From positions 44,213,034 to 44,277,033 of the forward strand of contig NC_133169.1 of NCBI RefSeq assembly GCF_040802235.1: DNA of 64,000 nt, given 5' to 3'. This DNA is from Manis javanica (lineage: Eukaryota; Chordata; Mammalia; Pholidota; Manidae). Position 1 is the first letter of the stretch. Each line of letters opens with the position of its first letter. A model generated the notes under the pieces. That model was not told the DNA's origin and ran no database searches. It worked only from the letters and a program-made list of their open reading frames with translations. Below, piece after piece: positions 12,837-64,000 of this stretch. A program made the translations under genes and the position numbers.

Positions 12837-12851
12837 TCAATCTTATTTTTT
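12837..12851. repeat. Target-site duplication of L1-1, left copy
   Basis: TCAATCTTATTTTTT here is repeated exactly at 20750-20764 on the far side of L1-1. The exact limits on the T-rich side are ambiguous by a few bases because they run into the reversed poly(A) tail. Confidence 0.85.
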
Positions 12852-14515: not shown

Positions 14516-14850
14516 TTTAATCTACACTTATATGAAGAATACTATGTTTACTATGCTCTCCCCTATATCAGGTCCCCCCCAAAAACCACATTACGGTCAC
14601 TGTCCATCAGCATAGCAAAATGTAGAATCTCTACTTGTCCTCTCTGTGTTGTACAGCCCTCCCTCCCCTTTCTCCCTTCCCCCACTATGCATGCTAATCT
14701 TAATATCCCCCTTCTTCTTCTCCCCCTTATACCCCCCTGCCCACCCATCCTCCCCAGTTCCTTTCCCTTTGGTACCTGTTAGTCCATTTTTGGGTTCTGT
14801 AATTCCGCTGCTGTTTTGTTGCTTCAGTTTTTCCTTTTTTCTTATACTAC

Positions 14851-17800
14851 TCAGATGAGTGAAATCATTTGGTATTTCTCTTTCTTTGCTTGGCTTATTT
14901 CGCTGAGCATAATACTCACCAGCTCCATTCATGTTGCTGCAAATGGTAGGATTTTTCCTCTTCTTATGGCTGAGTAGTATTCCATTGTGTATATGTACCA
15001 CATCTTCTTTATCCATTCATGTGTCGATGGACATTTAGGTTGCTTCCAATTCTTGGCTATTGTAAATAGTGCTGTGATAAACATAGGGGTGCATCTGTCT
15101 TTCTCAAACTTGATTGCTGCATTCTTAGGGTAAATTCCTAGGAGTGGAATTCCTGGGTCAAAAGGTAGGTCTGTTTTGAGCATTTTGATGAACCTCCATA
15201 CTGCTTTCCACAATGGTTGAACTAATTTACATTCCCAACAGCAGTGTAGGAGGGTTCCCCTTTCTTCACAGCCTCGCCAACATTTGTTGTTGTTTGTCTT
15301 TTGGATGGCAGCTATCCTTACTGGTGTGAGGTGATACCTCATTGTAGTTTTAATTTGCATTTCTCTGATAATTAGCGATGTGGAGCATCTTTTCATGTGT
15401 CTGTTGGCCATCTGTATTTCTTTTTTAGAGAACTGTCTGTTCAGTTCCTCTGCACATTTTTTAATTGGATTATTTGTTTTTTGTTTGTTGAGGCGTGTGA
15501 GCCCTTTATATATTCTGGACGTCAAGCCTTTATCGGATCTGTCATTTTCAAATATATTCTCCCATACTGTAGGGTTCCTTTTGTTCTATTGATGGTATCT
15601 TTCGCTGTACAGAAACTTTTCAGCTTAATGTAGTCCCACTTGCTCATTTTTGCTGTTGTTTTCCTTGCCCAGGGAGGTATGTTCAAGAAGAGGTCACTCA
15701 TGTTTATGTCTAAGAGGTTTTTGCCTATATGTTTATGTCTAAGAGGTTTTTGCCTATGTTTTTTTCCAAGAGTTTAATGCATTCATGACTTACATTCAGG
15801 TCTTTGATCCATTTTGAGTTTACCTTTGTATATGGGGTTAGACAATGGTCCAGTTTCATTCTCCTACATGGAGCTGTCCAGTTTTGCCAGCACCATCTGT
15901 TGAAGAGACTGTCATTTTGGCATTGTATGTCCATGGCTCCTTTATCAAATATTAATTGACCATATATGTTTGGGTTAATTTCTGAAGTCTATAATCTGTT
16001 TCACTGGTCTGTGGCTCTGTTCTTGTGCCAGTACCAAATTGTCTTGATTAATATGGCTTTGTAGTAGAGCTTGAAGTTGGGGAGTGAGATCCCCCCTACT
16101 TTATTCTTCTTTCTCAGGATTGCGTTGGCTATTCGGGGGCTTTGGTGTTTCCATATGAATTTTTGGATTATTTGTTCCAATTCATTGAAGAATGTTGCTA
16201 AAAATTTGATAGGGATTGCATCAAATCTGTATATTGCTTTAGGCAGAATGGCCTTTTTGACCATATTAATTCTTCTTAGCCATGAGCAGGGGATGAGTTT
16301 CCATTTGATAGTCTCCCCTTTAATTTCTCTTAAGAGTGACTTGTAGTGTTCAGAGTATAAGTCTTTCACTTCTTTGGTTAGGTTTATTCCTAGGTATTTT
16401 ATTCTTTTTGATGCAATGGTGAATGCAATTGTTTTCCTGATTTTATCTTTCTATTGGTTCATTGTTAGTGTATAGGAAAGCTACAGATTTCTCTGTGTTA
16501 ATTTTGTATCCTGCAACTTTGCTGTATTCCGATATCAGTTTAGTATTTTTGGGGAGGTGTCTTTAGGGTTTTTTATGTACAGTATCATATCATCTGCAAA
16601 TAGTATCAGTTTAACTTCTTCTTTACCAAACTGGATTCCTTGTATTTCTTTGTTTTGTCTGATTGCCGTGGCTAGGACCTCCAGTACTATGTTAATAACA
16701 GTGGGAAGAGTGGGCATCCCTGTCTGGTTCTCGATCTCAGAGGAAATGCTTTCCGCTTCTCGCTGTTCAGTATAATGCTGTCTGTGGGTTTATCATATAT
16801 GGCCTTTATTATGTTGAGGTACTTGCCTTCTATTCCCATTTCGCTGAGAGTTTTTATCATGAATGGATGTTGAATTTTGTCGAACGCTTTTTCAGCATCT
16901 ATGGAGATGATCATATGGTTTTTGTCTTTCTTTTTGTTGATGTGGTGGATGATGTTGATGGATTTTCGAATGTTGTAGCATCCTTGCATCCCTGGGATTC
17001 ATCCCACTTGGTCATGGTGTATGATCCTTTTGATATACTGTTGAATTCTGTTTGCTAATATTTTATTGAGTATTTTTGCATCTACATTCATCAGGGATAT
17101 TGGTCTGTAATTTTCTTTTTTGGTGAGGTCTTTTCCTGGTTTTGGAATTAGGGTGATGTTGGCTTCATAGAATGAGTTTGCAAGTATTCCCTCCTCTTAT
17201 ATTTTTTGGAACACTTTAAGGAGAATGGGTATTATGTCTTCTCTTGTGTCTGATAAAATTCCGAGGTAAATCCGTCCGGCCCCGGGGTTTTGTTCTTGGG
17301 TAGTTTTCTGATTACCGTTTCAATTTCTTTGCTCGTAATTGGTTTGTTTAACTTTTGTGTTTCTTCCTTGGTCAGTCTTGGGAGGTTGTATTTTTCTAGG
17401 AAGTTGTCCCTTTCTTCTAGGTTTTCCAGCTTGCTGGCATATAGGTTTTCATAGTCGTCTTTAATAATTCCTTGTATTTCTGTGGGGTGTGCCATGATTA
17501 TTCCATTCTCATTTCTGATTATGTTGATTTGTGTTGATTTTCTTTTTCTCTTAATCAGTTTGCCTAGAGGCTTATCTATTTTGTTATTTTCTCAAAGAAT
17601 CAGCTCTTGGTTTCATTGATTTTTGCTATTGTTTTATTCTTCTCAATTTTGTTTATTTCTTCTATGATCTTTATTATGTCCTTCCTTCTGCTGACTTTAG
17701 GCCTCATTTGTTATTCTTTTTCAAGTTTTGTTAGTTGTGATGTTATACTATTTATTTGGCATTGTTCTTCCTTCTTCAGGTGTGCCTGGATCGCTATATA

Positions 17801-18692
17801 CTTTCCTCTTAGGACTGCTTTCACTGCATTACCACAGAAGTTGGGGCTTTGTGTTGTTGTTGTCATTTGTTTCTATATATCCCTTGATCTATATTTTGAT
17901 TTGTTCATTGATCCATTGATTATTTAGAAGCATGTTGTTAACCCTCCATGTGTTTGTGTGCCTTTTTGTTTTCTTTGTAGAATTTATTTCTAGTTTTATG
18001 CCTTTGTGGTCTGAAAAATTGGTTGGTAGAATTTCCATATTTTGGAATTTACTGAGGCTCTTTTTGTGAGCTAGTATGTGGTCTATTCTGGAGAATGTTC
18101 CATGTGCACTTGAGAAGAATGTATATCCTGTTGATTTTGGATGTAGAGTTCTATAGATGTCTGTTAGGTCCATCTGTTCTAGTGTGTTGTTCAATGCCTG
18201 TGTGTCCTTTCTTATTTTCTGCCCAGTGGATTTATCCTTTGGGGTGAGTGGTGTGTTGATGTCTCCTAAGATGAATGCATTGCAGTCTATTTCCCTCTTT
18301 AGTTCTGTTAGTATTTGTTTCACATATGCTGGTGCTCCGGTGTTGGGTGCTTATATATTTAGAATGGTTACATCCTCTTGTTGGACTGAGCCCTTTATCA
18401 TTATGTAGTGTCCTTCTTTATCTCTTGATACTTTCTTTGTTTTGTAGTCTATTTTGTCTGATATTAGTACTGCAACCCCTGCTTTATTCTCGCTGTTGTT
18501 TGCCTGAAATATGTTTTTCCATCCTTTGACTTTTAGTCTGTGCTTGTCTTTGGGTTTGAGGTGAGTTTCTTGTAAGCCGCATATAGATGGGCCTTGCTTT
18601 TTTATCCATTCTATTACTCTATATCTTTTGATTTGTGCATTAAGTTCGTTTACATTTAGGGTGACTATTGAGAGATATGTACTTATTGCCAT
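14851..18692 (-). pseudogene. L1 ORF2 (endonuclease/reverse transcriptase), degraded
   Basis: ORF2p nicks target DNA and reverse-transcribes the L1 RNA. The start MAISTYLSIVTLN at 18692 opens the apurinic-type endonuclease domain (to about 17.9 kb, with CGLQETHLKPKD and the SRIDHIL region). The reverse transcriptase domain follows (about 17.45-16.4 kb), with [31 protein letters not shown] and the catalytic FADD box at 16589-16600. The C-terminal part ends near 14851 after [12 protein letters not shown]. The frame is broken repeatedly by stops and indels, so only fragments of at most about 200 codons stay open. It lies downstream of ORF1 on the same strand, as in all mammalian L1s. Confidence 0.93.
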
Positions 18693-18887
18693 TTGCAGGC
18701 TTTAGATTCGTGGTTACCAAAGGTTCAAGGTTAACTTATTTAGTATCTTACTGCCTAACTTAGCTCGCTTATTGAGCTGTTATATACACTGTCTGGAGAT
18801 TCTTTTCTTCCTCCCTTCTTATTCCTCCTCCTCCATTTTTCATATGTTGTATGTTTTGTTCTGTGCTCTTTTTAGGAGTGCTCCCAA

Positions 18888-19777
18888 CTAGAGCAGTCCC
18901 TGTAGGTTGCCCTGTAGAGGTGGTTTGTGGGAAGCAAATTCCCTCAGCTTTTGTATGTCTGGGAATTGTTTAATGCCACCATCATATTTAAATGATAGTC
19001 GTGCTGGATACAGTATCCTTGGTTCAAGGCCCTTCTGTTTCATTGCATTAAATATATCATGCCATTCTCTTCTGGCCTGTAGGGTTTCTGTCGAGAAGTC
19101 TGATGTTAGCCTGATGGGTTTTCCTTTATAGGTGACCTTTTTCTCTCTCTCTGCTTTTAAAACTCTTTCCTTGCCTTGATCCTTGCCATTTTAATTATTA
19201 TGTGTCTCGGTGTTGTCCTCCTTGGATCCTTTCTGTTTGGGGTTCTGTGTATTTCCATGGTCTGTTCGATTATTTCCTCCCCCAATTTGGGGAAGTTTTC
19301 AGCAATTATTTCTTCAAAGAGACTTTCTATCCCTTTTCCTCTTTCTTCTTCTTTTGGTACCCCTATAATACGAATATTATTCTTTTTGGATTGTTCACAT
19401 AGTTCTCTTAGTGTTGTTTCGTTCCTGGAGATCCTTTTATCTCTCTCTATGTCAGCTTCTATACCTTCCTGTTCTCTGGTTTCTATTCCTTCAATGGCCT
19501 CTTGCATCTTATCCATTCTGCTTATAAATCCTTCCAGGGATTTTTTCACTTCTGTGGTCTCCTTCCTGACATCTGTGATCTCCCTCCGGACTTCATCCCA
19601 TTTCTCTTGCATTTTTCTCTGCATCTCATCCCGTTGCTCTTGCATTTTTCTCTGCATCTCTGTCAGCATGTTTATGATTTTTATTTTGAATTCTTTTTCA
19701 GGAGGACTGGATAGGTCTGTCTCTTTCTCAGGTGTTGTCTCTGTGATTTTTGTCTCCCTGTATTTTTGCCTTTTCAT
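18888..19777 (-). pseudogene. L1 ORF1 (RNA-binding chaperone), frameshifted
   Basis: ORF1p trimerises and coats L1 RNA. The start MKRQKYRETKITETTPEKE is followed by a charged coiled-coil region rich in MQRKMQE repeats, then the RNA-recognition part (NNIRIIGVPKEEE, about 19.33-19.38 kb). The frame meets a stop at 19157-19159. Downstream sequence in other frames resumes with the C-terminal domain (SDFSTETLQARREW, LEPRILYPARLS) and ends at 18888-18890. L1-2 keeps the 19157 region continuous, so this break is copy-specific. Confidence 0.92.
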
Positions 19778-20749
19778 GGTGATAGAGATTGTTTGCAGAG
19801 CTGGTACGAGTGACAGCTGGATGAACTTTCCTTCTTGTTGGTTTGTGGCCTGCCTGTCCTGGGAGAATAGCTACCTCTAATGGCTTATTCTTGGCAGCTG
19901 TGTGCAGACAGGGCTCCTGCTACCTGTCCGGTTGCTACGGAGTTTATGTCCACTGTTGCTGTGGGGGTGGCCTGGTTGGGGCTGCTTCTCCAAAATGTTG
20001 GAGCCCCGTTGGATGGGGAATGGCCAAGAGGCTATTTATCTCTGTAATGGGCCTCTGTGCTCCCTGTTACCTTGGGGGTTACAGTGCACAGAGATCCCCA
20101 GATTCCCTGCCTCTGGGCTAAGTGTTCTGTCCTGCCCCTGTAAGACTTCCTAAAAGCCCTCTCCAAACCAAAACAACAACAGCAACAACGAAAGAGGAAA
20201 AAGAAAAAAAAGGAAAAAAACACGCGATTTTCTTTGTCCTCAGGCGCTGATCTCAGGCACCCGCTCACCGGTCTTGCTGCCCTGTTTCCCTAGTATTGGG
20301 TTCCCTGTCCCTTTAAGGCTTCCAAAAAGCACTCACCAAAAAAAAGGGAAAAATGCGCGATTTTCTTTGTCCTTGGGCGCTGGTCTCAGGCACCCGCTCA
20401 CTGGCCTTACTGCCCTGTTTCCCTAGTATTGGGGTCCTTGTCCCTTTAAGGCTTCCAAAAAGCACTCGCCAAAAAAGAAAAAAAAAACTGCTCCAGTTTC
20501 TTTCCACCCGCCGGGAGCCGGGGGGAGGGGCGCTCGGGTCCCACTTGGCCGGGGCTTGTATCTTACCCCCTTCGCAAGGCGCTGGGTTCTCGCAGGTGTG
20601 GATGTGGTCTGGATGTTGTCCTGTGTCCTCTGGTCTCTATTTTAGGAAGTGGTCTTTGTTATATTTTCATAATTCTATGTGGTTTGGGAGGAGAGTTCCT
20701 CTGCTCTACTCACACTGCCATCTTGGCTCTGCCCCAGGCCATGCTTTTT
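19778..20749 (-). promoter_or_regulatory. L1-1 5' UTR with internal tandem duplication
   Basis: This is GC-rich sequence between the L1 5' end and ORF1, where the internal L1 promoter normally lies. On the plus strand, 'gcgattttctttgtcc' occurs at 20224 and again at 20357, and 'cctttaaggcttcc' at 20310 and 20443. That is a 133-bp tandem unit present about 2.3 times over 20135-20490. L1-2 has a single copy. The element's first bases correspond to plus-strand 'ccatcttggctctgcccc' near 20735. Confidence 0.8.
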
Positions 20750-30986: not shown

Positions 30987-30997
30987 TCAACTGCCTT
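30987..30997. repeat. Target-site duplication of L1-2, left copy
   Basis: TCAACTGCCTT here is repeated exactly at 38078-38088 across L1-2. Confidence 0.85.
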
Positions 30998-31016
30998 CTT
31001 TTTTTTTTTTTTTGAG

Positions 31017-32640
31017 AGGGCATCTCTCATATTTATTGATCAAATGGTTGTTAATAACAATAAAATTCTGTATAGGGGACTCAATGCTCAATGCACAATC
31101 ATTAACCCACCCCAAGCCTAATTCTCATCAGTCTCCAATCTTCTGAAGCATAATGAACAAGTTCTTACATGGTGACCAAATTCTTACATAGTGAATAAGT
31201 TCTTACATGGTGAACAGTGCAAGGACAGTCATCACAGAAACTTTCAGTTTTGATCACGTATTATGAAGTATAAATAATCAGGTCAAATATGAATATTTGA
31301 TTTTTATACTGGATTTATATGTGAATCCCACATTTCTCCCGTATTATTATTATTATTTTTAATAAAATACTGAAGTGGTAGGTAGATGCAAGATAAAGGT
31401 AGAAAACATACTTTAGTGCTGTAAGAGGGCAAATGTAGATGATCAGGTGTGTGCCTCTAGACTAAGTATTAATCCAAGCTAGACAAGGGCAACAAAACAT
31501 CCACGGCTGCAAAAAATTTCTCTCAAAACAGGGGTGCGGGGTTCTAAGCCTCACCTCTGTTGATCCCCAATTTCTCACCTGATGGCCCCCCTGCGACTGT
31601 GCCTGTCTTAGGTTGTTCCTCCCTTGAAGAATCTTACCCATCTCTGGCTAACCAGTCATCTTCTGGGGCCATACAGGGAAATGTAAAGTTGGTAAGTGAG
31701 AGAGAAGCAATATTGTTTGAAATGGTTAGCTTTGTACTTCTTTGCAGATTTATGCCCTGTGGCTTTTATGCCCAGCATTTGTCTTGAGGTATCTTTACCA
31801 CTTGGAAGAATTATGATACATGGTAATTGCATTATGAGGCACTAATTCTAAGAAAGGATTGTAATAAGGAAGGAAGAAGAAAAGGTATAGAAGTAGCAGA
31901 TGGAAGAAAACATGGGAAGATTGATTATTTCTTTGACATATCTTCTTGTAGAGTAACATAAGCATGTATAGGTTTTAAACTACTAATTAAATTGCACACA
32001 CACATTAACATTATAGAAATACAGCTACATAACCAAAGCAGACCTAGAATTACCAGCCATCTCCAGTGAAACCAAGAAAACTAGTTAGGCACCCTAGGCA
32101 TTTGTGAAAACTTATCAATGATATGAAGGATATTGTCTAACTGAATTTGAATAGTTTGAGAGAAATCAGACAAATTAAAACAACACATTCCTGGGAACTG
32201 TTCACATCCCATATGTTCTTTTAACAGTAGATAGTCTGTAGTCGTAAGATTTTTGAGCGCTGACACTTGAACTTCTAATTATTGGTTGAGTTCCAACAGT
32301 ATACATCCAGTCAAATTTGTTGTTTCACTGTATGCACAGGCCAGCTTAGATATCTCCTTCTTCATTCCATTGGCAATTCCAGGAACCCGTGGGATGAATG
32401 CAGCTACAACTGCAACAGCGCTAGGATCTTTGTTGAAGTTTTTGATGATCATCTTCTGGAATGACTCTTCCAGAGTATGTTGATGTTGGAACTTCTTCTT
32501 CATATCGTATCTTAGTTTGTTTTCTGGGTAGCCAAATTAGGCTTTGACCTTCTGTATAAACACAAACAGACCCTTTGCCCACACTTTGATATGCCCTTAA
32601 TACCATTGTGAAGAACTTAATGGAGGTCATCACACAGGAA
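31017..32640 (-). mobile_element. ERV-derived 3' extension of L1-2 (integrase-tail-like, Env-TM remnant, PPT, U3-like end)
   Basis: One sense frame (plus-strand 32511-32568) reads [20 protein letters not shown], a G-x-G/VCV/WLPR pattern like a retroviral integrase C-terminal domain. A second frame starting at 32503 holds the hydrophobic AVAVVAAFIPRVPGIANG (about 32364-32428), like a fusion peptide, then LACAYSETTNLTG. After a break it resumes with TTDYLLLKEHMG, the CX6CC motif CEQFPGMCC (32180-32206), FNLSDFSQTIQIQLDNI, and IIDKFSQMPRVPN. Beyond are the polypurine/TG site (about 31334-31350) and AATAAA close to the tail. It is broken by several stops. The domain order is that of a retroviral TM subunit. 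Confidence 0.75.
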
Positions 32641-32683
32641 CTGCTTTTTTTTTTTGAAGAGAAAGGAATATTATCAGAAAAAT

Positions 32684-35600
32684 GTATTTCGACCGTTTTG
32701 AGGAACCTCCATACTGCTTTCCACAACGGTTGAACTAATTTACATTCCCACCAACAGTGTAGGAGGGTTCCCCTTTCTCCACAACCTAGCCAACATTTCT
32801 TGTTGTTTGTCTTTTGGATGGCAGCCATCCTTACTGGTGTGAGGTGATACCTCCTTGTGGTTTTAATTTGCATTTCTCTGATAATTAGCGATGTGGAGTA
32901 TCTTTTCATGTGTCTGTTGGCCACCTGTATTTCTATTTTGGAGAACTGTCTGTTTAGTTCCTCTGCCCATTTTTTAATTGGTTATTTGATTTTTGATTGT
33001 TGAGGCATGTGAGCTCTTTATATATTTTGGACGTCAAGCCTTTATCGTATCTGTCATTTACAAATACATTCTCCCATACTGTAGGGTTCCTTTTTGTTCT
33101 ATTGATGGTTTCTTTTGCTGTACAGAAGCTTGTCATCTTAATATAGTCCCACTTGTTCATTTTTGCTCATGTTGTCCTTGCCCGGGGAGATATGTTCAAG
33201 AAGAGGTCACTCATGTTTATGTCTAAGAGGTTTTTACCTATGTTTTTTTCCACGAGTTTAATGGTTTCATGACTTATATTCAGGACTTTGATCCATTTTG
33301 AATTTACTTTTGTATATGGGATTAGACAATGGTCCGGTTTCATTCTCCTACATTTGGCTGTCAGTTTTGCCAGCACCATCTGTTGAAGAGACTGTCATTT
33401 CACCATTCTATGTCCATGACTCCTTTATCAAATATTAATTGACCACATATGTTTGGGTTAATGTCTGGAGTCTCTAGTCTGTTCCACTGGTCTGTGGCTC
33501 TGTTCTTGTGCCAGTATCAAATTGTCTTGATTACTATGGTTTTATAGTAGACCTTGAAATTGGTGAGTGAGATCCCCCCTACTTTATTCTTCTTTCACAG
33601 GATTGCTTTTGCTATTCGGGGTCTTTGGTGTTTCCATATGAATTTTTGAATTACTTGTTCCAGTTCATTGAAAAATGTTGCTGGTAATTTGATAGGGATT
33701 GCATCAAATCTGTATATTGCTTGGCTGGATGGCCATTTTGACAATATTAATTCTTCCTAGCCACGTGCAGAGGATAATTTTCCATTTGTTAGTGTCCCCT
33801 TTAATTTCTCTTAAGAGTGACTTGTAGTTTTCAGAGTATAGGTCATTCACTTCTTTGGTTAGATTTATGCCTAGATATTTCATTCTTTTTGATGCAATTG
33901 GGAATGGAATTGTTTTCCTCATTTCTCTTTCTATTGGTTCATTTTTACTGTATAGGAAAGCTACAGATGTCTGTGTGTTAATTTTGAATCCTGCAACTTT
34001 GCTGTATTCCAATGTCAGTTCTAGTAGTTTTGGGGTGGAGTCTTTAGGGTTTTTATGTACAATATCATGTCCTCTGCAAATAGTGACAGTTTAAGTTCTT
34101 AGTTAATAATCTGGATTTCTTGTATTTCTTTGTTTTGTCTGATTGCCATGCCTAGGACCTCCAGTACTATGTTAAATAAAAGTGAGGAGAGTGGGTATCC
34201 CTGTCTTGTTTCGGTATCAGAGGAAAAACTTTCAGCTTCCCGATGTTAAGTATGATGCTGGCTGTGGGTTTATCATATATGGCCTTTGTTATGTTGAGGT
34301 ACCTGCACTCTATAACCATTTTGCTGAGAGTTTTTATCATGAATGGATGTTGAATTTTGTCACATGCTTTTTCAGCATCTATGGATATGATCATGTAGTT
34401 TTTGTCTTTCTTTTTGTTGATGTGGCAGATGATTTTGATGAACTTTCGAATGTTGTACCAACCTTGCATCCCTTGGATGAATCCCACCTGGTCATCATGT
34501 ATGATCCTTTTGATATATTTTTGAATATGGTTTGCTAATATTTTATTGAGTATTTTTGCATCTACATTCATCAGGGATATTGGCCTGTAATTTTCTTTTT
34601 TGTTGGGGTCTTTGCCTGGTTTTGGTATTAGGGTGATGATGGCTTCATACAATGAGTTTGGGAGTATTCCCTGTTCCTCTATTTTTTTGAAAACTTTAAG
34701 GAGAATGCGTATGTCTTTTCTGTGTGTCTGATAAAATTCCACGGTAAATTCATCCGGCCCGGGGTTTTGTTTCTGGGTAGTTTTTTAATTAGTGTTTCAA
34801 TTTTGTTGCTCATAATTGGTTTGTTTAACTTTTGTGTTTCTTCTTTGGTCAGTCTTGGAAGGTTGTATTTTTCTAGGAAGTTGTCCATTTCTTCTAGGTT
34901 TTCCAGCTTGTTGGCATATAGGTTTTCATAGAAGTATTTAATAATTTTTTGTTTTTCTGTGGAGTCTGTCGTGATTTTTCTGTTCTCATTTCTGATTCTG
35001 TTGGTTTGTGTTGATTCTCTTTTTCTCTTAATAAGTTGGCTAGAGGCTTATCTATTCTGTTTATTTTCTCAAAGAACCAGCTCTTGGTTTCATTGATTTT
35101 TGCTATTGTTTTATTCTTCTCAATGTTGTTTATTTCTTCTCTGATCTTTATTATGTCCTGCCTTGTGCTGACTTTAGGCCTCATTTGTTCTTCTTTTTCC
35201 AGTTTTGATAATTGTGATGTGAGACTATTCATTTAGGATTGTTCTTCCTTCTTCAAGTGTGCCTGGATCGCTATATACTTTCCTCTTAAGACTTCTTTCA
35301 CTGTGTCCCACAGAAGTTGGGACTTTGTGTTGTTGTTTTCATTTGTTTCCATATATTCCTTGATCTCTATTTTAATTTGTTTGTTGATCCATTGATTATG
35401 TATGAGCATGTTGTTAAGCCTCCATGTGTTTCTGAGCCTTTTTGTTTTCTTTGTAGAATTTATTTCTCATTTTATACCTTTGTTTTCTCAAAAGTTGGTT
35501 GCTAGAATTTCAATATTTTGTAATTTACTGAGGCTCTTTTTGTGGGCTAGTATGTGGTCTATTCTGGAGAATGTTCCATGTGCACTTAAGAAGAATGTAT

Positions 35601-36166
35601 ATCCTGTTGCTTTTAGATGTGGAGTTCTATAGATTTCTATTAGGTCCATCTGTTCTACTGTGTTGTTCAGTGCCTCCGTGTTCTCACTTATTTTCTGCCA
35701 TTGGATTTATCCTTTGTTGTGAGTGGTGTGTTGAAGTCTCCTAAAATGAATGCATTGCAGTCTATTTCCCCCTTTAGTTCTGTTAGTATTTGTTTCACAT
35801 ATGCTGGTGCTCCTGTGTTGGGTGCATATATATTTAGAATGGTTATATCCTCTTGTTGGTCTGAGCCCTTTATCATTATGTAGTGTCCTTCTTTATCTCC
35901 ATTTACTTTCTTTGTTTTGAAGTCTATTTTGCCTGATATTAGTACTGCAATCCTGCTTTCTTCTTGCTGTTGTTTGCCTGAAATATGTTTTTCCATCCCT
36001 TGAATTTTAGTCTGTGCATGTCTTTGGGTTTGAGGTGAGTTTCTTGTAAGCAGCATATAGGTGGGTCTTGCTTTTTAATCCATTCTGCTACTCTGTGACT
36101 TTTGATTGGTGCATTAAGTCCATTTCCATTTAGGGTGACTATTGAAAGATATGTACTTATTGCCAT
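32684..36166 (-). pseudogene. L1 ORF2, degraded and 3'-truncated
   Basis: It starts MAISTYLSIVTLNGNGLNAP at 36166. Endonuclease-domain fragments (LQETHLKPKD, YAPNTGAPAYVKQIL) lie at 36166-35690. The reverse transcriptase fragment at 34742-34167 includes [20 protein letters not shown] and [20 protein letters not shown]-terminal fragments run to the junction near 32684. Stops and indels are scattered through it. In the last open piece the frame passes from ORF2 ([20 protein letters not shown]) directly into extension sequence, which shows the internal deletion. Confidence 0.9.
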
Positions 36167-36360
36167 TGCAGGCTTTAAATTCGTGGTTACCAAAGGTTCA
36201 AGGTTAGCCTCTTTAGTATCTTACTGCCTAACTTAATTCACTTATTGAGCTGTTATATACACTGTCTGGATATTCTTTTCTTCTCTCCCTTCTTATTCCT
36301 CCTCCTCCATTCTCCATATGTTGGGTGTTTTTTCTGTGCTCTTTTTAGGAGTGCTCCCAT

Positions 36361-37212
36361 CTAGAGCAGTCCCTGTAAGATGCCCTGTAAAGGTGGTTTG
36401 TGGGAGGCAAATTTCCTCAGCTTTTGTTTGTCTGGGAAATGTTTGATCCCTCTGTCATATTTAAATGATAATCATGCTGGATACAGTATCCTTGGTTCAA
36501 GGCTCTTCTGTTTCATTGCATTAAATATATCATGCCATTCTCTTCTGGCCTGTTGGGTTTCTGTCGAGAAGTCTGATGATAGCCTGATGGGTCTTCCTTT
36601 ATAGATGATCTTTTTCTCTCTAGCTGCCTTTAAAACTCTTTCCTTGTCCTCGATCTTTGCCATTTTAATTTTTATGTGTCTTGGTGTCCTCGGGTCCTTT
36701 CTGTTGGGAGTTCTGTGTATTTCTGTGGTGTGTTCGATTATTTTCTCCCCCATTTTGGGTAAGTTTTCAGCAATTATTTCTTCAAAGACACTTTCTATCC
36801 CTTTTTCTCTCTCTTCTTCTTCTGGTACCTCTATAATATGGACATTGTTCCTCTTGGCTTGGTCACACAGTTCTCTTAATATTGTTTCATTCCTGGAGAT
36901 CCTTTTATCTCTCTTTATGTCAGCTTTTATGCGTTCCTGATCTCTGGTTTCTATTCCATCAATGGCCTCTTTCATCTTATCCATTCTGCTTATAAATCCT
37001 TCCAGAGTTTGTTTCACTTCTGTAATCTCCTTCCTGGCATCTGTGATCTCTCTCCAGACTTCCTCCCTTAGTTCTTGCATATTTCTCTCCATCTCCATCA
37101 GCATGTTTATTTTTTTTACTTTTAATTCTTTTTCGGGAAGACTGGTTAGGTCTGCCTCCTTCTCTGCTGTTGTCTCTGTGATCTTGGTGTGCCTGTAATT
37201 TTGCCTTTTCAT
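36361..37212 (-). pseudogene. L1 ORF1, one premature TGA
   Basis: It starts MKRQNYRHTKITETTAEKEA. A coiled-coil region and the RNA-binding region are open for 246 codons and end at a TGA at 36472-36474 after LEPRILYPA. L1-1 has an arginine codon (CGA) there, so this is a single CpG-type transition. In-frame sequence continues with the C-terminal domain to the stop at 36361-36363. It is better preserved than the L1-1 ORF1. Confidence 0.92.
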
Positions 37213-38077
37213 GGTGATAGAAAGTTTGCAGAGCTGGGTCGACTTATGGCTGGATGAACTCCCCTTCTTGTTGGTTTTTGGCCTTCCTATCCTGGGAGAA
37301 CAGCGACCTCTTGTGGCTTGTGCTCAGCAGCTGCGTGCAGACAGGGATTCTGATTCCTGCCTGGCTGCCATGGAGTTTACCTCTGCTGTTGATGTGGGCT
37401 TGGCCTGTCTCGGGCTGCTCCTCCAAAATGGTGGAGCCACATTGGAGGAATGCAGCAGGGAGGCTATTTATCTCTGTGAGGGGCCTCCATGCTCCCTGCT
37501 GCCCAGGGGGTTAGAGTGCCCAGAGATCCCCAGATTCCCTGCCACTAGACTAAGTGTCCCACCTTTCCCTTTAAGATTACCAAAAAGCACTTGCCAAAAC
37601 AAAACAAACAAAAAAGAAAAAATTAAATGAATAATTAAAAAAAAAGTTAAGATAAAAAAAGCTGCTTGCTTTTCTTTGTCCTCAGGCACTGGCCTCAGGG
37701 ACCCGCTCACTGCTGTTGCTGCCCTCTTTCCCTAGTATCCAGGATCCCACACACGCACTGTGTCTGTGCTCTTGTCCGGATGACTGGGGCTGGGTGTTCA
37801 GGAATCCTGGGCTCCCTTCTCCCTCCTGGCTCTGACTCTTCTCCTCCCACCAGGAGCTGGGGGGAGGGGTGCTCAGGTCCCACTGGGCTGGTGCTTGTAT
37901 CTTACCCCCTTTGCAAGGCGCTGTGTTCTCTCAGGTGTGAATGTGGTCTGGTTGTTGTCCTGTGTCCTCTGGTCTCTATTCTAGGAAGAGTTGTCTTTGT
38001 TATATTTTCATAAATATATGTGGTTTTGGGAGAAGATTTCCGCTGGTCTACTCACACCACCATCTTGGCCCTGCTTC
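37213..38077 (-). promoter_or_regulatory. L1-2 5' UTR
   Basis: GC-rich and homologous to the L1-1 5' UTR, but with a single copy of the unit that is tandemly repeated in L1-1. Its outer end is plus-strand 'ccatcttggccctgcttc', adjoining the target-site duplication. It is expected to hold the internal promoter by family knowledge; no individual factor site was assigned. Confidence 0.75.
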
Positions 38078-38088
38078 TCAACTGCCTT
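38078..38088. repeat. Target-site duplication of L1-2, right copy
   Basis: TCAACTGCCTT, identical to 30987-30997. Confidence 0.85.
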
Positions 38089-44195: not shown

Positions 44196-44197
44196 AG

Positions 44198-51537: not shown

Positions 51538-51551
51538 AAAAAAGGGGGAGA
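51538..51551 (+). promoter_or_regulatory. Polypurine tract
   Basis: AAAAAAGGGGGAGA immediately precedes the 3' LTR. It is the RNase H-resistant primer for plus-strand DNA synthesis. Confidence 0.93.
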
Positions 51552-51885
51552 TGTTGGCAGCCGCGCTCAGAAAATAGCGCCCAATGCAGGGCAGCCGGAA
51601 GGCCCCGAACTTCCTAATGACAAATCATCCCACACCACTAAACTACATGCTAATTGCGCCTTGGCATAAGGACCAATGAGACCCACCAAATGGTTATGCT
51701 AATAAGGCATATGGAGCCGCACCAACCAGGTCAGAGCATGAGAACTATATAAGCAAGCCTCTCCTTCCCCTCTGGGTCCTGCCCAACTCATTTGTTTCAC
51801 AAAGAGCTGAAGAATAAAGCTTTCTGCAGAAGAATCCTGCTGTTGTTGCATGCTGTTCTTGCCGGCGAGGACAGGGCACGCGACA
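51552..51885 (+). repeat. 3' LTR (334 bp)
   Basis: It matches the 5' LTR except at 51579 (G against A) and 51863 (C against T). TATATAA is at 51746-51752 and AATAAA at 51813-51818, which supplies polyadenylation. Confidence 0.96.
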
Positions 51886-56060: not shown

Positions 56061-56212
56061 TCTCTACCTCTTTGAAACACTTGTTGGTATGGAGATGCAC
56101 CAAGGTCAGAAGAGAGAATCTGCAAATCTGGCAATTTTATTTACATGGAGAAAAAAGTTAATTTAAAGGTGTTGGAAGCTATATGACAGTAAGCCAGCCA
56201 AATATACTATTC
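56061..56212. other. Short intergenic segment
   Basis: Lies between the gag-like fragment and L1-3. Nothing recognised. Confidence 0.5.
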
Positions 56213-56221
56213 TTTTTTTTT

Positions 56222-57880
56222 TAGAGGGCGTCTCTCATATTTATTGATCAAATGGTTGTTAATAACAATAAAATTCTGTATAGGGGACTCAATGCACAAT
56301 CATTAATCAACCCCAAGCCTAATTCTCTGCAGTCTCCAATCTTCTGAAGCATAATGAACAAGTTCTTACATGGTGAACAAATTCTTACATAGTGAATAAG
56401 TTCTTACATGGTGACAGTGCAACGGCAGTCATCACAGAAACTTTTGCTTTTCATCACGCATTCTGAACTATAAACATTCAGGTCAAATATGAATATTTGC
56501 TTGATTTTTATACTTGATTTATATGTGAATCCCACATTTCTCCCTTATTATTATTGTTATTACTTTTATTATAATTTTTAATAAAATGTTGAAGTGGTAG
56601 GTAGATGCAAGATAAAGGTAGAAAACATACTTTAGTGCTATAAGAGGGCAAATGTAGATGATCAGGTGTGTGCCTATAGACTAACTATTAATCCAAGCTA
56701 GACAAGGGCAACAAAACATCCACGGCTGCAGAAAATTTCTCTCAAAACAGGGGTGTGGGGTTCTAAGCCTCACCTCTGTTGATCCCCAATTTCTCACCAG
56801 ATAGTCCCCCTGCGACTGAGCCTGACTTAGGTTGTTCCTCCCTTGAGGAATCTTACCCATCTCTGGCTAACCAGTCATCTTCTGGGGCCATACAGGGAAA
56901 TGTAAAGTTGGTAAGTGAGAGAGAAGCAATATTGTTTGAAATGGTTAGCTTTGTACTTCTTTGCAGATTTATGCCCTGTGGCTTTTATGCCCAGCATTTG
57001 TATTAAGGTATCTTTACCACTTGGAAGAATTATGACACTCGGTAATTTCATTATGAGGCACGAATTCTACTTAAGAGTTGTCATAAGGAAGGAAGAAGAA
57101 AAGTTATAGATGTAGCAGATGGAAGAAAACATGGGAAGATTGATTATTTCTTTGACATATCTTCTTATAGAGTAACATAAGCATGTATAGGTTTTAAACT
57201 ACTTATTAAATTGCACACACACATTAACATAATAGGAATACAGCTACATAACGAAAGCAGACCTACAATTAGCAGCCCTCTCCAGTGAAACCAAGAAAAC
57301 CAGTTAGGCACCCTAGGCATTTGTGAAAACTTATCAATGATATGATGGATATTGTCTGATTGAATTTGAATAGTTTGAGAAAAATCAGACAAATTAAGAC
57401 AACACATTCCTGGGAACTGTTCACATCCCAAATGTTCTTTTAACAGCAGATAGTCTGTAGTCACAAGACTTTGGAGTGCTGCAACTTGCACTTCTCCTAA
57501 TTCTTGGTTGAGTTATGACAGTATAGATCCAGTCAAATTTGTTGTTTTACTGTATGCACAGGCCAGCTTAGATATCTACTTCTTCATTCCAATGGCAAGT
57601 CCAGGAACCGGTGGGATGAATGCAGCTACAACTGCAACAGCGCCAGGATCTTTGTTGAAGTTTTTTGATGTTCATCTTCTGGAATGACTCTTCCAGAGAA
57701 TGTTGATGTTGGAACTTCTTCATGTTCTATCTTAGTTCATTTTCTGGGTAGCCAAATTAGGCTTTGATCCTCTGTATAAACACAAACAAACCCTTTGCCC
57801 ACACTTTGATATGCCCTTTATATCATTGTGAAGAATTTATTGGAGATCACCACACAGGAACAGATTTCTTTTTAACAGAA
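56222..57880 (-). mobile_element. ERV-derived 3' extension of L1-3; clearest Env-TM remnant
   Basis: This gives the best reading of the Env-like part. A frame from 57491 to 57165 (108 codons) runs through LQSLVTTDYLLLKEHLG, CEQFPGMCC (CX6CC, 57399-57425), LNLSDFSQTIQIQSDNIHH, PNWFSWFHW, and a hydrophobic anchor LLIVGLLSLCSCIPIMLMC (about 57212-57290). Upstream in the same orientation are a hydrophobic AVAVVAAFIPPVPG segment and LACAYSKTTNLTGS, interrupted by stops. Downstream are AAGGGAGAAA and TGTGGG (56531-56546) and the U3-like end with AATAAA. The order matches a retroviral TM subunit. The reading is decayed and non-functional. Confidence 0.78.
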
Positions 57881-58358
57881 AGGAATATTATCAGAAAATG
57901 TACTTCCATAGCTGATCATCTGATACCCTTTAACTGATCAAAATAAAGGACATTTAAAACATACTTTTCTGGTTGATTTATAGTTAGTTTTATCCCATCA
58001 GGGAGTAATCCCCCTTTTCTTTTTTTTGTTATCATTAATCTACAATTACATGAAGAATATTATGTTTACTAGGCTCTCCCCTATAAAAGGTCACCCCCAC
58101 AAACCCCTTTACAGTCACTGTCCATAGGCATAGCAAACTGTTGTAAAATCACTACTTGTCTTCTCTGTGTTGTACAGCCCTCCCCTTTCTCCCATCCCCC
58201 ATTATGCATGCTAATCATAAACCCCCTTTCTTCTTCCCCTCCTGTATCCCTCCCTACCCACCCATCATCCCCAGTCCCTTTCCCTTTGGTACCAGTTAGC
58301 CCATTCTTGGGATCTGTGGTTCTGCTGCTGTTTTGTTCCTTCAGTTTTTCCTTTGTTC

Positions 58359-60139
58359 TTATACTCCACAGATGAGTGAAATCATTTGGTATTTCTCTTT
58401 CTCCACTTGGATTATTTCACTGAGCATAATACCCTCTAGCTCCATCCATGTTGCTGCAAATGGTAGGATTTGTTTTCTTCTTAAGGCTGAGTAATATTCC
58501 ATTGTGTATATGTACCACATCTTCTTTATCCATTCATCTACTGATGGACACTTAGATTGCTTCCAATTCTTGGCTATTGTAAATAGTGCGTGATAAACAT
58601 AGGGGTGCATCTGTCTTTTTCAAACTTCAGTGCTGTGTTCTTTGGGTAAATTCCTAGGAGTGGAATTCCTGGGTCAAATGGTAAGTCTATTTCGAGCATT
58701 CTGAGGAACTCCATACTGCTTTCCACAATCGTTGAACTAATTTACATTCCCACCAGCAGTGTAGGAGGGTACCCTTTTCTCCACAACCTTGCCAACATTT
58801 GTTGTTGTTTGTCTTTTTAATGGCAGCCATCCTTACTGGTGTGAGGTGATACCTCATTGTGGTTTTAATTTGTATTTCACTGATAATTAGCGATGAGGAA
58901 CATCTTTCATGTGTCTGTTGGCCACCTGTATTTATTTTTTGGAGAACTGTCTGTTCAGTTCCTCTGCCTATTTTTCCATTGGATTATTTGTTTTTTGTTT
59001 GCTGAAGTGTGTGAGCTCTTTATATATTTTGGACGTCAAGCCTTTATCGGAGCTGTCATTTACAAATATACTCTCCCATACTGTAGGGTACTTTTTTGTT
59101 GTATTGATGGTGTCTTTTGCTGTACAGAAGCTTTTCAGCTTAATATTGTCCCACTTGTTCATTTTTGCTGATGTTGTCCTTGCCCGGGGAGATATGTTCA
59201 AGAAGAGGTCACTCATGTTTATGTCTAAGAGGTTTTGCCTATGTTTTTTTCCAGGATTTTAATGGTTTCATGACTTAACATTCAGATCTTTGATTCATTA
59301 TGAATTTACTTTTGTGTATGGGGTTAGACAACTGTCCAGTTTCATTCTCCTACATGTAGCTGTCCAGTTTTGCCAGCACCATCTGTTGAAGAGACTGTCA
59401 TTTTGCCATTGTATGTCCAGGGCTCCTTTATCAAATATTAATTGACCATATATGTTTGGGTTAATGTCTGGAGTCTCTAATCTGTTCCACTGGTCTGTGG
59501 CTCTGTTCTTGTCCCAGAACCAAATTGTCTTCTTTACCATGGCTTTGAAGTTTGGGAGTGAGATCCCCCTACTTTATTCTTCTTTCTCAGGATTGCTTTG
59601 GCTATTCGGGGTCGTTGGTGTTTCCATATGAATTTTTGAATTATTTATTGCAGTTCGTTGAAGAATGTTGCTGGTAATTTGATAGGATTGCATCAAATCT
59701 CTATATTGCTTTGAGCAGGATGGCCATTTTGATGCCAGGAGCTTGGGATAAGTTTCCATTTGTTAGTGTCCCCTTAAATTTCTCTTAAGAGTATCTTGCA
59801 GTTTTCAGGGTATAGGTCTTTCACTTTTTTGATTAGGTTTATTCCTAGGTATTTTATTCTTTTTGATGCAATTGGGAATGGAATTGCTTTCCTCATTTCT
59901 CTTTCTATTGGTTCATTGTTAGTATATAGGAAAGCCACAGCTTTCTGTGTGTTAATTTTGTATCCTGAAACTATTGAATTCCAATATTAGCTCTAGTAGT
60001 TTTGGGTTGGAGTCTTTAGGGTTTTTATGTACAATATCATGTCATCTGCAATTAGTGACAGCTTAACTTCTTCTTTATCAATCTGGATTCCTTGTATTTC
60101 TTTGTTTTGTCTGATTGCCATGGCTAGGACCTCCAGTAC
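58359..60139 (-). pseudogene. L1 ORF2 C-terminal half, degraded
   Basis: Recognisable pieces are [20 protein letters not shown] (58359-58610), [20 protein letters not shown] (59216-58968) and [20 protein letters not shown] (59540-59298). Frames are interrupted by indels and stops. Residual reverse-transcriptase coding sequence reaches 60139 and then ends. Confidence 0.88.
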
Positions 60140-60641: not shown

Positions 60642-60678
<37 letters not shown>

Positions 60679-60679
<1 letters not shown>

Positions 60680-62315
60680 AGAGGGCATCTCTCATATTTA
60701 TTGATCAAATGGTTGTTAACAACAATAAAATTCAGTATAGGGGGGTCAATGCTCAATGTACAATCATTAATCCATCTCAAGCCTAATTCTCGTCAGTCTC
60801 CAATCTTCTGAAGCATAACGAACAAGTTCTTACATGGTGAACGAATTCTTACAGAGTGAATAAATTCTTACATGGTGAACAGTACAAGGGCAGTCATCAC
60901 AGAAACTTTCGGTTTTGATCATGCAATATGACCTATAAACCATCAGGTCAAATATGAATATTCATTTGATTTTTGTACTTGATTTATATGTTGATCCCAC
61001 ATTTCTCCTATTATTATTATTATTTTTATTTTTAATAAAATGCTGAAGTGGTAGGAAGATGCAAGATAAAGGTAGAAAACATAGTTTAGTGCTGTAAGAA
61101 GGCAAATGTAGATGATCAGATGATCAGGTGTGTGCCTATGGACTAAGTATTAATCCAGGCTAGACAAGGGCAGCAAGACATCCACGGATGCAGAAGATTT
61201 CTCTCAAAGCAGGGGGGGTGAGGTTCTGAGCCTCACCTCTGTTGACCCCCAAATTCTCACCTGATGGCCCCCCTGCGACTGTGCCTGTCTTAGGTTGTTC
61301 CTCCCTTGAGGAATCTTACCCGTCTCTGGCTAACCAGTCATCTTCCGGGGCCATACAGGGAAATGTAAAGTTGGTAAGTGAGAGAGAAGCCATATTGTTT
61401 GCAAAGGTTAGCTTTTTACTTCTTTGCAGATTTATGCCCTGTGGCTTCTATGCCCAGCACTTGTCTCGAGGTATCTTTACCACCTGGAGGAATTATGATA
61501 CTCGGTAAATTCGATATGAGGCACGAATTCTATTTAAAGTTTGTAATTAGGAAGGAAGAAGAAAAGCTATAGATGTAGCATATGAAGGAAACTTGGGAGG
61601 ATTGATTATTTCTTTGACATATCTTCTTGTATAGTACCTTAAGTATGTATAGGTTTTAAACTACTAACTAATTTGCACACACATATTGACATAATAGGAA
61701 TACGGTGACATAAACAAAGCAAATCTATAATTACCAGCCATCTCCAGTGAAGCCAAGAAAACCATTTAGGCACCCTAGGCATTTGTGAAAATTTATCTAT
61801 GATATGATGGATATTTTCCAACTGTACTTGAACCATCAGACAAATTAAAGCAGCCCATTTCTGGGATCTGTTCACATCCCATATGTTCTTTTAACCATAG
61901 ATAGTCTATAGTCATGAGATTTTGGGGTGCTACAACTTGCACCCCTCCCAACTCCTGGTTGAGTTCCAACAGTACAGATCCAGTCAAATTCGTTGTCTCA
62001 CTGTATGCACATGCCAGCCTAGACATCTCCCTCCTCCTTCTTATGGCAAGTCCAGGAGACGGTGGGCTGGATGCAGCCACAACCGCAGCATCGTCCGGAT
62101 CCCTGTGGAGGCTTTTTGATGATCATCCCCCGGCACGAGTCCTCCAGAGAGTGCTGATGCCGGAAGCTCCTCCTCATATCGTATCTTAGTTCATTTTCTG
62201 GGTATCCAAGCTAGGCCTTGATCTTCTGCGTAGAGACAAACAGACCCTTTGCCCACACTTTGACATGCCCTCTATACCACTGTGCAGAACTCATTGGAGG
62301 TCAGCACACAGTAAC
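60679..62315 (-). mobile_element. ERV-derived 3' extension of L1-4
   Basis: A frame from 62080 to 61793 reads LACAYSETTNLTGSVLLELN, DYLWLKEHMG, CEQIPEMGC (61850-61876; first Cys of the pair is Gly, as in L1-1) and FNLSDGSST. In another frame (61875-61639) HHIIDKFSQMPRVPKWFSWL and a hydrophobic segment (IDLLCLCHRIPIMSICVC) follow. The U3-like end carries AATAAA next to the tail. L1-1 and L1-4 share the CPEMG-type variant and are one sublineage; L1-2 and L1-3 keep CC. Confidence 0.75.
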
Positions 62316-62861
62316 TGCTTTTTTTTTTTTTTTTTTTTAATTAAGAGAAAGGAATATTATCAGAAAAGAGTACCTCCATAGCTGATCATCTGACACCCTT
62401 TAAGTGATCAACATTAAGGATATTTAAAGCATGCGTTGATCTTTGATTTACCAATAGTTTTATCCTGTTAAGGAGTAATCCCCCTTTTCTTTCTTTCTTT
62501 CTTTTTTTTTTTTTTTTTTAAATTTTTAATCTACACTTACCTGAAGAATACTATGTTTACTATGCTCTCCCCTATATCAGGTCCCCCCTAACAACCACAT
62601 TACGGTTACTGTCCATCAGCTTAGCAAAATGTTGTAGAGTCACTACTTGTCCTCTCTGTGTTGTGCAGCCCACCCTCCCCTTTCTCCCTCCCCCCCATGC
62701 ATGCTAATCTTAATACCCCCCTTCTTCTTCCCCCCCCTTATCCCTCCCTGCCCACCCATCCTCCCCAGTTCCTTTCCCTTTGGTACCTGTTAGTCCATTT
62801 TTGGGTTCTGTAATTCTGCTGCTGTTTTGTTCCTTCAGTTTTTCCTTTGTTCCTATACTCC

Positions 62862-64000
62862 TCAGATGGGTGAAATCATTTGGTATTTCTCTTTCTCCGC
62901 TTGGCTTATTTCACTGAGCATAATACTCTCCAGCTCCATCCATGTTGCTGCAAATGGTTGGATTTTTCCACTTCTTATGGCTGAGTAGTATTCCATTGTG
63001 TATATGTACCACATCTTCTTTATCCATTCATCTACAGATGGACATTTAGGTTGCTTCCAATTCTTGGCTATTGTAAATAGTGCTGCGATAAACATAGGAG
63101 TGCATCTGTCTTTCTCAAACTTGATTGCTGCGTTCTTAGGGTAAATTCCTAGGAGTGGAATTCCTGGGTCAAATGGTAGGTCTGTTTTGAGCATTTTGAT
63201 GCACCTCCATACTGCTTTCCACAATGGTTGAACTAATTTACATTCCCACCAGCAGTGTAGGAGGGTTCCCCTTTCTCCACAGCCTCGCCAACATTTGTTG
63301 TTGTTTGTCTTTTGGATGGCAGCTATCCTTACTGGTGTGAGGTGATACCTCATTGTAGTTTTAATTTGCATTTCTCTGATAATTAGCGATGTGGAGCATC
63401 TTTTCATGTGTCTCTTGGCCATCTGTATTTCTTTTTTGGAGAACTTTCTGTTCAGTTCCTCTGCCCATTTTTTAATTGGGTTATTTGTTTTTTGTTTGTT
63501 GAGGCGTGTGAGCTCTTTATATATTCTGGACGTCAAGCCTTTATCAGATCTGTCATTTTCAAATATATTCTCCCATACTGTAGGGTTCCTTTTTGTTCTA
63601 TTGATGGTGTCTTTCGCTGTACAGAAGCTTTTCAGCTTAATGTAGTCCCACTTGCTCATTTTTGCTGTTGTTTTCCTTGCCCGGGGAGATATGTTCAAGA
63701 AGAGATCACTCATGTTTATGTCTAAGAGGTTTTTGCCTATGTTTTTTTCCAAGAGTTTAATGGTTTCGTGACTTACATTCAGGTCTTTGATCCATTTTGA
63801 GTTTACCTTTGTATATGGGGTTAGACAATGGTCCAGTTTCATTCTCCTACATGTAGCTGTCCAGTTTTGCCAGCACCATCTGTTGAAGAGACTGTCATTT
63901 TGCCATTGTATGTCCATGGCTCCTTTATCAAATATTAATTGACCATATATGTTTGGGTTAATTTCTGGGGTCTCTAATCTGTTCCACTGGTCTGTGGCTC
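62862..64000 (-). CDS. L1 ORF2 C-terminal part, open to the window edge
   Basis: The frame is open from the window edge (64000) to the stop at 62862-62864, about 379 codons. It contains [40 protein letters not shown], the C-terminal region with [20 protein letters not shown] (Cys-rich motif near 63240-63300), and [13 protein letters not shown]. It encodes the region after the reverse-transcriptase core, needed for target-primed reverse transcription. It is the only uninterrupted ORF2 piece in the window, so L1-4 may be intact upstream. Confidence 0.9.

What the first reader, a model, noticed from the sequence alone, without database searches (positions are those of the whole stretch)
56222..57880. 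L1 lineage carrying a captured retroviral Env transmembrane-subunit remnant in its 3' end
Downstream of the normal L1 3' UTR, L1-3 contains, in L1 sense, a hydrophobic fusion-peptide-like segment, a heptad-like region, CX6CC (CEQFPGMCC, 57399-57425), a second helical region, and a 19-residue hydrophobic anchor. The same segment is at 14033-14059, 32180-32206 and 61850-61876 in the other three L1s. Target-site duplications enclose L1-1 and L1-2 with the segment inside, so the chimera retrotransposes as one unit. I know of no described mammalian L1 family defined by an ERV env fragment, but I could not search.
Basis: partly seen in the sequence, partly recalled or inferred. Interest (0 to 1): 0.93.

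Follow-up and report, generated by a model that had tools for sequence, protein, structure and literature searches.

The report
LINE-1 ending in a retrovirus tail
In this mammal a lineage of the jumping gene LINE-1 took over the tail end of an old retrovirus, from the end of its integrase gene through the membrane part of its envelope gene to its end-of-message signal, and copied that tail many times, which shows that a self-copying LINE can swap its own 3' end for a viral one.

Summary
The finding holds and is larger than described. All four L1s carry, in L1 sense, 1.7-1.8 kb of retroviral sequence at the 3' end: integrase C-terminus, Env transmembrane subunit (surface subunit missing), viral 3' UTR, polypurine tract, and LTR U3-R ending at the LTR's AATAAA. 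It follows the ordinary L1 3' end and an A-run in 3 of 4; L1-2 lost that part. A native 175-codon TM frame from another copy matches a solved alpharetroviral TM at E 8.5e-13; no Pfam model matches. A related provirus matches the tail at 83% on both sides of about 0.9 kb in SU position, and LTRs run on into U5 where the L1 turns to poly(A). Tail-bearing L1s form one clade in the sample tested. The exact L1-integrase junction occurs 998 times, the LTR-end-plus-poly(A) string 17,882 times. Most likely an L1 in an SU-deleted provirus read through to the 3' LTR, and this 3' transduction became the lineage's 3' end. TM changes look neutral. SVA is the closest precedent; ten searches listed no such autonomous L1.

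The parts
56210..60139 (-). L1-3 with the retroviral tail; shorter than L1-1 at its 5' side, no TSD recognised
   Evidence: self-BLAST; sequence
58015..58027 (-). A-rich remnant of the original L1 poly(A) and the A-rich start of the integrase fragment; junction of L1 and provirus in L1-3
   Evidence: plain L1s end at or within 30 bp of this point; 998 exact junctions genome-wide
57651..58014 (-). integrase C-terminal fragment in L1-3
   Evidence: PF00552 IN_DBD_C E 0.0088, below Pfam's cut-off, for 57740-57817; the same part of copy L007 matches L039 2044-2417 at 83%
57147..57650 (-). Env TM subunit remnant in L1-3; SU missing, junction at 57650/57651
   Evidence: positions; L007 counterpart
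57399..57425 (-). CX6CC motif (CEQFPGMCC)
56537..57146 (-). viral 3' untranslated region ending in a polypurine tract in L1-3
   Evidence: match of the L007 counterpart to L031; polypurine tract by eye
56223..56536 (-). LTR U3-R in L1-3, starting TG, with AATAAA at 56240-56245, then poly(A)
12841..20740 (-). L1-1, sharing its 5' end with L1-2; tail 12846-14512; lacks about the first 130-150 bp of the integrase fragment; TSD TCAATCTTAT... at 12837 and 20750
30996..38080 (-). L1-2; tail 31002-32690; lacks the ORF2 3' end, the L1 3' UTR and most of the first 130 bp of the integrase fragment; TSD TCAACTGCCTT at 30987 and 38078
60661..64000 (-). L1-4, runs off the window; tail from about 62511 down to 60667
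36475..37212 (-). ORF1 of L1-2
   Evidence: PF02994 E 1.4e-16, PF17490 E 1.4e-8
34170..34742 (-). ORF2 reverse transcriptase piece of L1-2
   Evidence: PF00078 E 9.8e-18
17892..18323 (-). ORF2 endonuclease piece of L1-1
   Evidence: PF03372 E 1.5e-8

Best explanation
This is an L1 lineage whose 3' end is a fixed 3' transduction of the 3' part of a class II provirus that lacks SU. Shown: the order L1 3' UTR, poly(A) remnant, integrase C-terminus, Env TM, viral 3' UTR, polypurine tract, LTR U3-R, poly(A); the same retroviral order in a related provirus, and the same LTR end followed by U5, elsewhere in the genome; tail-bearing L1s on one side of a branch in the sample; insertions with TSDs whose RNA 3' end is the LTR R end. 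Inferred: an ancestral L1 lay in sense in the A-rich stretch of an integrase gene; its transcript passed the L1 poly(A) site, ran on through the SU-deleted env and was polyadenylated at the 3' LTR; the RNA was retrotransposed and founded the lineage, and from then on the LTR's AATAAA ended the L1 RNA. The TM frame rides along without detectable selection.
For: L1 identity: ORF1, endonuclease and RT domains. Six plain L1s of the same genome end at or within 30 bp of the point where the tail starts. L1 3' end, A-rich stretch and integrase join in 8 of 10 tail-bearing copies whose junction is in view, and in 998 exact genome-wide matches, 0 in the backwards control. TM: E 8.5e-13 to ASLV TM for L007. 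Integrase: PF00552 E 0.0088. Related provirus L039/L031: RT thumb, RVT_1 and RNase H, with rve just under Pfam's cut-off; 83% match on both sides of ~0.9 kb in SU position. LTR end: of 14 places fetched because they were listed with AGCACCAC, 12 continue into one shared U5 of about 110 bp, as do 4 of the first 10 loci. 17,882 exact LTR-end-plus-poly(A) strings, control 0. Mobility: TSDs at L1-1 and L1-2, L004 and L028, the last holding only the distal ~490 bp. One side of a branch: 8 tail-bearing against 4 plain L1s, support 97/97, 98% of bootstrap trees.
Against: The donor locus was not found; 14 requests for it did not complete. No Pfam TM family matches. The SU gap has no GT-AG ends in the one provirus seen, so whether the deletion came before, during or after capture is unknown. 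The 17,882 strings were not each shown to be L1. In the 200-kb random sample 1 of 7 L1 3' ends that I read carried the tail; an eighth, older end in L028 was not read. The seven fetched tail-bearing copies were picked by similarity to L1-3. The tree is unrooted and small; L006, L011 and L019 were dropped for covering too little of the stretch, and L1-2, L004 and L028 lack it. Four of the 12 U5-bearing LTRs match the tail's U3 only weakly (L043 69%, L046 68%) or over 29-44 bp (L050, L052), and L037 not at all, so the LTR family is mixed. The two ends that lie 20 nt into U5 are not shown to be L1-linked transcripts of the source.
Confidence: 0.82

Rival explanations
1. Template switching: during reverse transcription the enzyme passed between L1 RNA and a separate ERV RNA, joining the two without any L1 lying in a provirus.
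For: The junction lies in an A-rich stretch of the integrase gene, where a jump onto poly(A) is easy. The L1-in-provirus locus was not found.
Against: The viral piece is 3' of the L1 and has its own poly(A) end, the form of a 3' transduction. Two elements end about 20 nt into U5 before poly(A) (L036, L047), which suits transcription across a genomic LTR, though neither is shown to come from the source L1.
Confidence: 0.1
2. DNA-level fusion: a deletion or recombination joined a genomic L1 3' end to a proviral remnant, and the fused locus was then transcribed as one unit.
For: The missing SU shows that a deletion occurred in or near the donor.
Against: The junction falls at the L1 3' end plus poly(A), which an L1 insertion explains and a random DNA deletion would not favour.
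Confidence: 0.06
3. The four copies are a local artefact, or chance hydrophobic and cysteine patterns in L1 3' UTR.
For: No Pfam profile hit; two of four copies lack CX6CC.
Against: E 8.5e-13 TM match; homologous provirus; dispersed copies.
Confidence: 0.01
4. The TM frame is kept open by selection and makes a protein (an L1 ORF3). This can hold together with the best explanation.
For: Open native frame of 153-187 codons in 7 of 7 fetched copies. In the 115-codon part 7 of 11 aligned copies have neither stop nor indel.
Against: The other 4 of 11 are broken: L1-1 has 3 stops, L1-2 two stops, L1-4 an 11-base deletion and a stop, L008 a 1-base insertion. Private changes N51:S17:stop5 fit the neutral expectation of 70/24/6%; A/B differences N35:S16:stop1 do not differ from private ones (p 0.85). 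The frame lies downstream of ORF2.
Confidence: 0.04

Closest known systems
SVA (hominid composite retrotransposon), SINE-R part
   Same: A non-LTR-type mobile element whose 3' end is the 3' env and LTR of a class II ERV, ending at the LTR poly(A) signal (recalled; [quoted passage not shown]
   Different: SVA codes for nothing and depends on L1 (recalled). Here the carrier is L1 itself with ORF1 and ORF2, and the fragment holds the integrase end and TM.
L1 3' transductions and transduction families (human L1; recalled)
   Same: L1, poly(A), downstream flank, new poly(A), TSDs.
   Different: Those are usually unique flanks in a few copies. Here the flank is proviral, ends at an LTR poly(A) site and recurs in very many copies.
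L1 5' UTR replacement and LINE-1 chimeras (PMC13174262; abstract, outline, section 22 and found passages seen)
   Same: L1 gains new ends from other RNAs.
   Different: What I saw concerns 5' fusions; the main text had 0 hits for envelope and for endogenous retrovir.
Alpharetrovirus (ASLV) Env TM; gamma-type TM with CX6CC
   Same: CX6CC region and flanking sequence, E 8.5e-13.
   Different: Here a remnant without SU inside a LINE; the related provirus has a class II pol.
Env retrogene copy made by L1 (ARTenvV, PMC9604959; found passages seen)
   Same: L1 machinery copies env sequence.
   Different: There an env mRNA is copied in trans; here env sequence is part of the L1.

Membership tests
L1 (LINE-1) | ORF1 with RBD-like domain | tested here: met
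   PF02994 E 1.4e-16 (L1-2) and 7.3e-15 (L1-1)
L1 (LINE-1) | ORF2 with endonuclease and reverse transcriptase | tested here: met
   PF03372 E 1.5e-8 (L1-1) and PF00078 E 9.8e-18 (L1-2); frames are broken into pieces
L1 (LINE-1) | TSDs and 3' poly(A) | tested here: met
   L1-1, L1-2, L004, L028; none recognised for L1-3
L1 3' transduction | own L1 poly(A) followed by downstream flank and a second poly(A), all inside one TSD pair | tested here: met
   L1-1, whose tail lacks its first 130-150 bp; L1-2's TSDs enclose the tail but its L1 3' end is deleted
L1 3' transduction | flank traceable to a source locus | tested here: inconclusive
   a related provirus was found, not the source; searches for it (first, last) did not complete
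Retroviral Env TM | curated TM profile (Pfam) | tested here: not met
   0 families
Retroviral Env TM | sequence homology to known TM with CX6CC | tested here: met
Retroviral Env TM | position between SU and LTR in a provirus | tested here: inconclusive
   in L039/L031 the matching stretch lies between a ~0.9-kb gap and the LTR; that the gap is SU rests on position, it was not profiled
Class II (beta-like) ERV donor | RT thumb and class II-like RT and integrase | tested here: met
   for the relative L039: PF06817 E 1.2e-32; best PDB 7sr6 E 1.6e-60 and 3jca E 2.6e-9, whose virus names (HERV-K, MMTV) are recalled; the integrase piece had no Pfam hit
Class II (beta-like) ERV donor | lysine-type primer binding site | tested here: inconclusive
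   by eye after LTRs L045, L049, L052 and L037, the type being recalled; the script's own PBS pattern matched none of 14
SVA | Alu-like, VNTR and SINE-R modules, no coding capacity | tested here: not met
   the carrier is an L1 with ORF1 and ORF2; Alu-like and VNTR parts were not searched for

The most novel reading that the evidence does not exclude
The captured TM is translated as a third L1 product: a membrane-anchored fusion or immunosuppressive subunit, open in young copies, that gives an L1 lineage a virus-like protein.
Probability: 0.04. Interest if true: 0.96.

Novelty: new variant of a known kind. Interest (0 to 1): 0.76.

Why it matters
LINEs and retroviruses are usually treated as separate lineages that do not exchange working parts in mammals (my own knowledge). 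Here an L1 gave up its own 3' end and uses an LTR poly(A) signal, with a large number of copies as the record. It makes directly testable whether a strong foreign poly(A) signal helps an L1 lineage spread, and it warns that env-like, TM-like and LTR-like hits in such a genome can be L1 tails and would inflate ERV and env counts.

Tried and rejected
Chance motif or local duplication: rejected. Splicing as the cause of the SU gap: no GT-AG ends in the one provirus seen; left open. Selection on TM: no support. The window's provirus at 43859-51885 as donor: a search with the LTR end of L007 did not match its LTR and its env matches GP41; rejected. IMG/VR scan for TM relatives: 9 pattern matches, none confirmed. 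Plasmid collection, near mode: no match. PHROGs: none. Species identity: not settled; I recall a pangolin-like L1 tail, which no call tests, and a family search meant to help did not complete. Count of plain against tail-bearing L1 ends of one subfamily: requests unanswered. Literature: ten searches (two found no paper; others listed 15 of 82 and 10 of 17). No listed title or abstract start names an L1 lineage with an ERV env or LTR 3' end; four papers were opened (PMC9604959, PMC4643047, PMC1764860: found passages; PMC13174262: abstract, outline, section 22, found passages).

Full report
What is there. Four L1 elements lie on the minus strand of the window: L1-1 12841-20740, L1-2 30996-38080, L1-3 56210-60139 and L1-4 60661 to the window end. 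ORF1 (PF02994), endonuclease and reverse transcriptase domains identify them as L1 (pieces of L1-1 and L1-2). L1-1 and L1-2 have different target-site duplications, so they inserted independently; both lie near olfactory-receptor-like frames (named from recall) in DNA that is itself only 74% alike.

The tail. Six plain L1s in 200 kb of random stretches (L010, L011, L013, L019, L022, L026) end at, or within 30 bp of, the point matching window 14502 of L1-1 and pass into A-rich tail and flank. In 8 of 10 tail-bearing copies whose junction is in view (window L1-3 and L1-4; L002, L003, L005, L006, L007, L008) the same L1 end is followed by an A-rich stretch and then by a string like GGGGATTACTCC, with small differences. 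The other two are L1-1, which lacks about 130-150 bp there, and L1-2, which also lacks the end of ORF2 and the L1 3' UTR. L004 is truncated inside the tail, and L028 holds only its distal end.

Retroviral content. In L1 sense the tail holds, first, an integrase C-terminus: the 26-residue piece 57740-57817 matches IN_DBD_C at E 0.0088, below Pfam's cut-off. Second, an Env TM subunit. Native frames in L002-L008 run 175 codons in 5 of 7, 187 in L004 and 153 in L008. The frame of L007, the only one of these sent to the PDB search, matches ASLV TM at E 8.5e-13 and, more weakly, other viral fusion subunits (9x3j 1.5e-7, 4n21 1.4e-6, RAVV GP2 5.5e-4). Pfam has no hit, and one 85-aa piece of L1-2 upstream of the CX6CC region found no TM in the PDB. 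Third, a viral 3' UTR, polypurine tract and LTR U3-R with AATAAA, then poly(A).

The donor family. A pattern for the LTR end with non-A bases after it gave 2,048 places with up to 2 mismatches and none in the backwards control; 100 were listed. Of the ten loci returned, four (L030, L031, L032, L037) run on into a shared U5, one (L036) goes about 20 nt into U5 and then to poly(A), and five have other flanks; three of those (L033-L035) share one flank. I then fetched 14 listed places chosen because they showed AGCACCAC: 12 continue into the same U5 of about 110 bp, L047 goes 20 nt into U5 and then poly(A), and for L051 the script caught another copy of the motif and it was not scored. Upstream, the 12 match the tail's U3-R over 29-320 bp at 68-91%, and L037 not beyond the motif, so the LTR family is mixed. 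L030 looks like a solo LTR, TG...CA, with GAGGG on both sides (by eye). L031/L039 is a related provirus with RT thumb, RVT_1, RNase H and, just under cut-off, rve. Tail positions 1-386 of L007 match L039 2044-2417 and 388-1814 match L031 134-1524, both at 83%; between them the provirus has about 0.9 kb, by position SU, that the tail lacks. All 40 scored hits (of 3,822 candidates; one is L1-3 itself) run unbroken across this junction.

How many and how old. The exact junction pattern (33 fixed bases with a gap of 5-30) is found 998 times and the LTR end with at least seven A 17,882 times, both with 0 in the backwards control. L1-3 itself does not match the second because it lacks one C. The places were not checked one by one for a linked L1. 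In the 20 random 10-kb stretches, 1 of 7 L1 3' ends that I read carried the tail (an eighth, older piece in L028 was not read); the plain ones are 77-87% alike to L1-1. K2P among the nine A copies is 3.4-7.2%, L1-1 to L1-4 (subfamily B) 7.4%, and A to B 11.4-15.4%. At 2.2e-9 per site per year, the average mammalian rate quoted in PMC4643047 (found passage), 4% between two copies means about 9 million years; these copies were picked for similarity, so this leans young. In a tree of the last 1.2 kb of the L1 body, 8 tail-bearing copies stand on one side of a branch against 4 plain ones, support 97/97, in 98% of bootstrap trees; the tree has no outgroup, and copies that cover too little of the stretch (L006, L011, L019) or lack it (L1-2, L004, L028) are not in it.

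Mobility. L004 (tail only; TSD AAAAATGAAGTAGG) and L028 (distal ~490 bp; TSD AATTATTGTTTTAC) are 5'-truncated insertions. They show that the RNA 3' end used for insertion is the LTR R end.

Selection. Nei-Gojobori ratios of 0.48-0.52 overstate constraint because substitution bias is ignored. With the substitution pattern of the rest of the tail, neutral expectation is N 70%, S 24%, stop 6%; private changes were 51:17:5, and A/B differences 35:16:1, not different from private plus B-private changes (p 0.85). Of 11 aligned copies 7 have an unbroken 115-codon part and 4 are broken. The open frame in young copies is therefore not evidence of use. Unexplained: A and B differ more in the integrase-TM half (12-26% per 100 bp) than in the distal half (3-13%), and diagnostic changes are denser in the TM frame (52 of 508) than in the rest (43 of 1,092), perhaps through recombination between subfamilies.

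Mechanism. Shown: order of parts, donor family, LTR end as RNA end, one side of a branch in the sample, dispersal. Inferred: an L1 in sense within the A-rich part of the integrase gene of an SU-deleted provirus, read-through of the L1 end, polyadenylation at the LTR, retrotransposition and spread. That a stronger poly(A) signal helped is a hypothesis.

Novelty. 3' transductions and, in SVA, ERV-derived 3' ends are known kinds (recalled); no listing among ten searches of the held library named an L1 lineage with such an end. That library lacks most subscription journals, and listings were capped. Repeat libraries such as Repbase could hold this tail unnamed; they could not be searched here.

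Noticed in passing
43859-51885: A young-looking provirus with LTRs of 337 bp that are 99.4% identical and long open gag, pro/dUTPase, pol and env frames (Gag_p24, RVP, dUTPase, G-patch, RVT_1, RVT_thumb, rve, IN_DBD_C; env with GP41). Its LTR did not match the L1 tail.
   Followed up: partly
8856-9839 and 28246-29238: Two olfactory-receptor-like copies (named from recall) on the minus strand, one an open 327-aa frame and one split, within 74%-alike duplicated DNA.
   Followed up: no
5103-5786: Tandem repeats spaced 40 bp apart, 12 copies in register.
   Followed up: no
56210-58014: Subfamilies A and B differ more in the integrase-TM half than in the distal half of the tail.
   Followed up: partly
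L040 93-2098 (next to L036): A full tail copy is followed at once by a second, truncated tail copy: matches end at 1918 and start at 1915.
   Followed up: no
L033, L034, L035: Three places on contig C1 share nearly the same flank after the tail, so they look like copies of one insertion made by DNA duplication.
   Followed up: no
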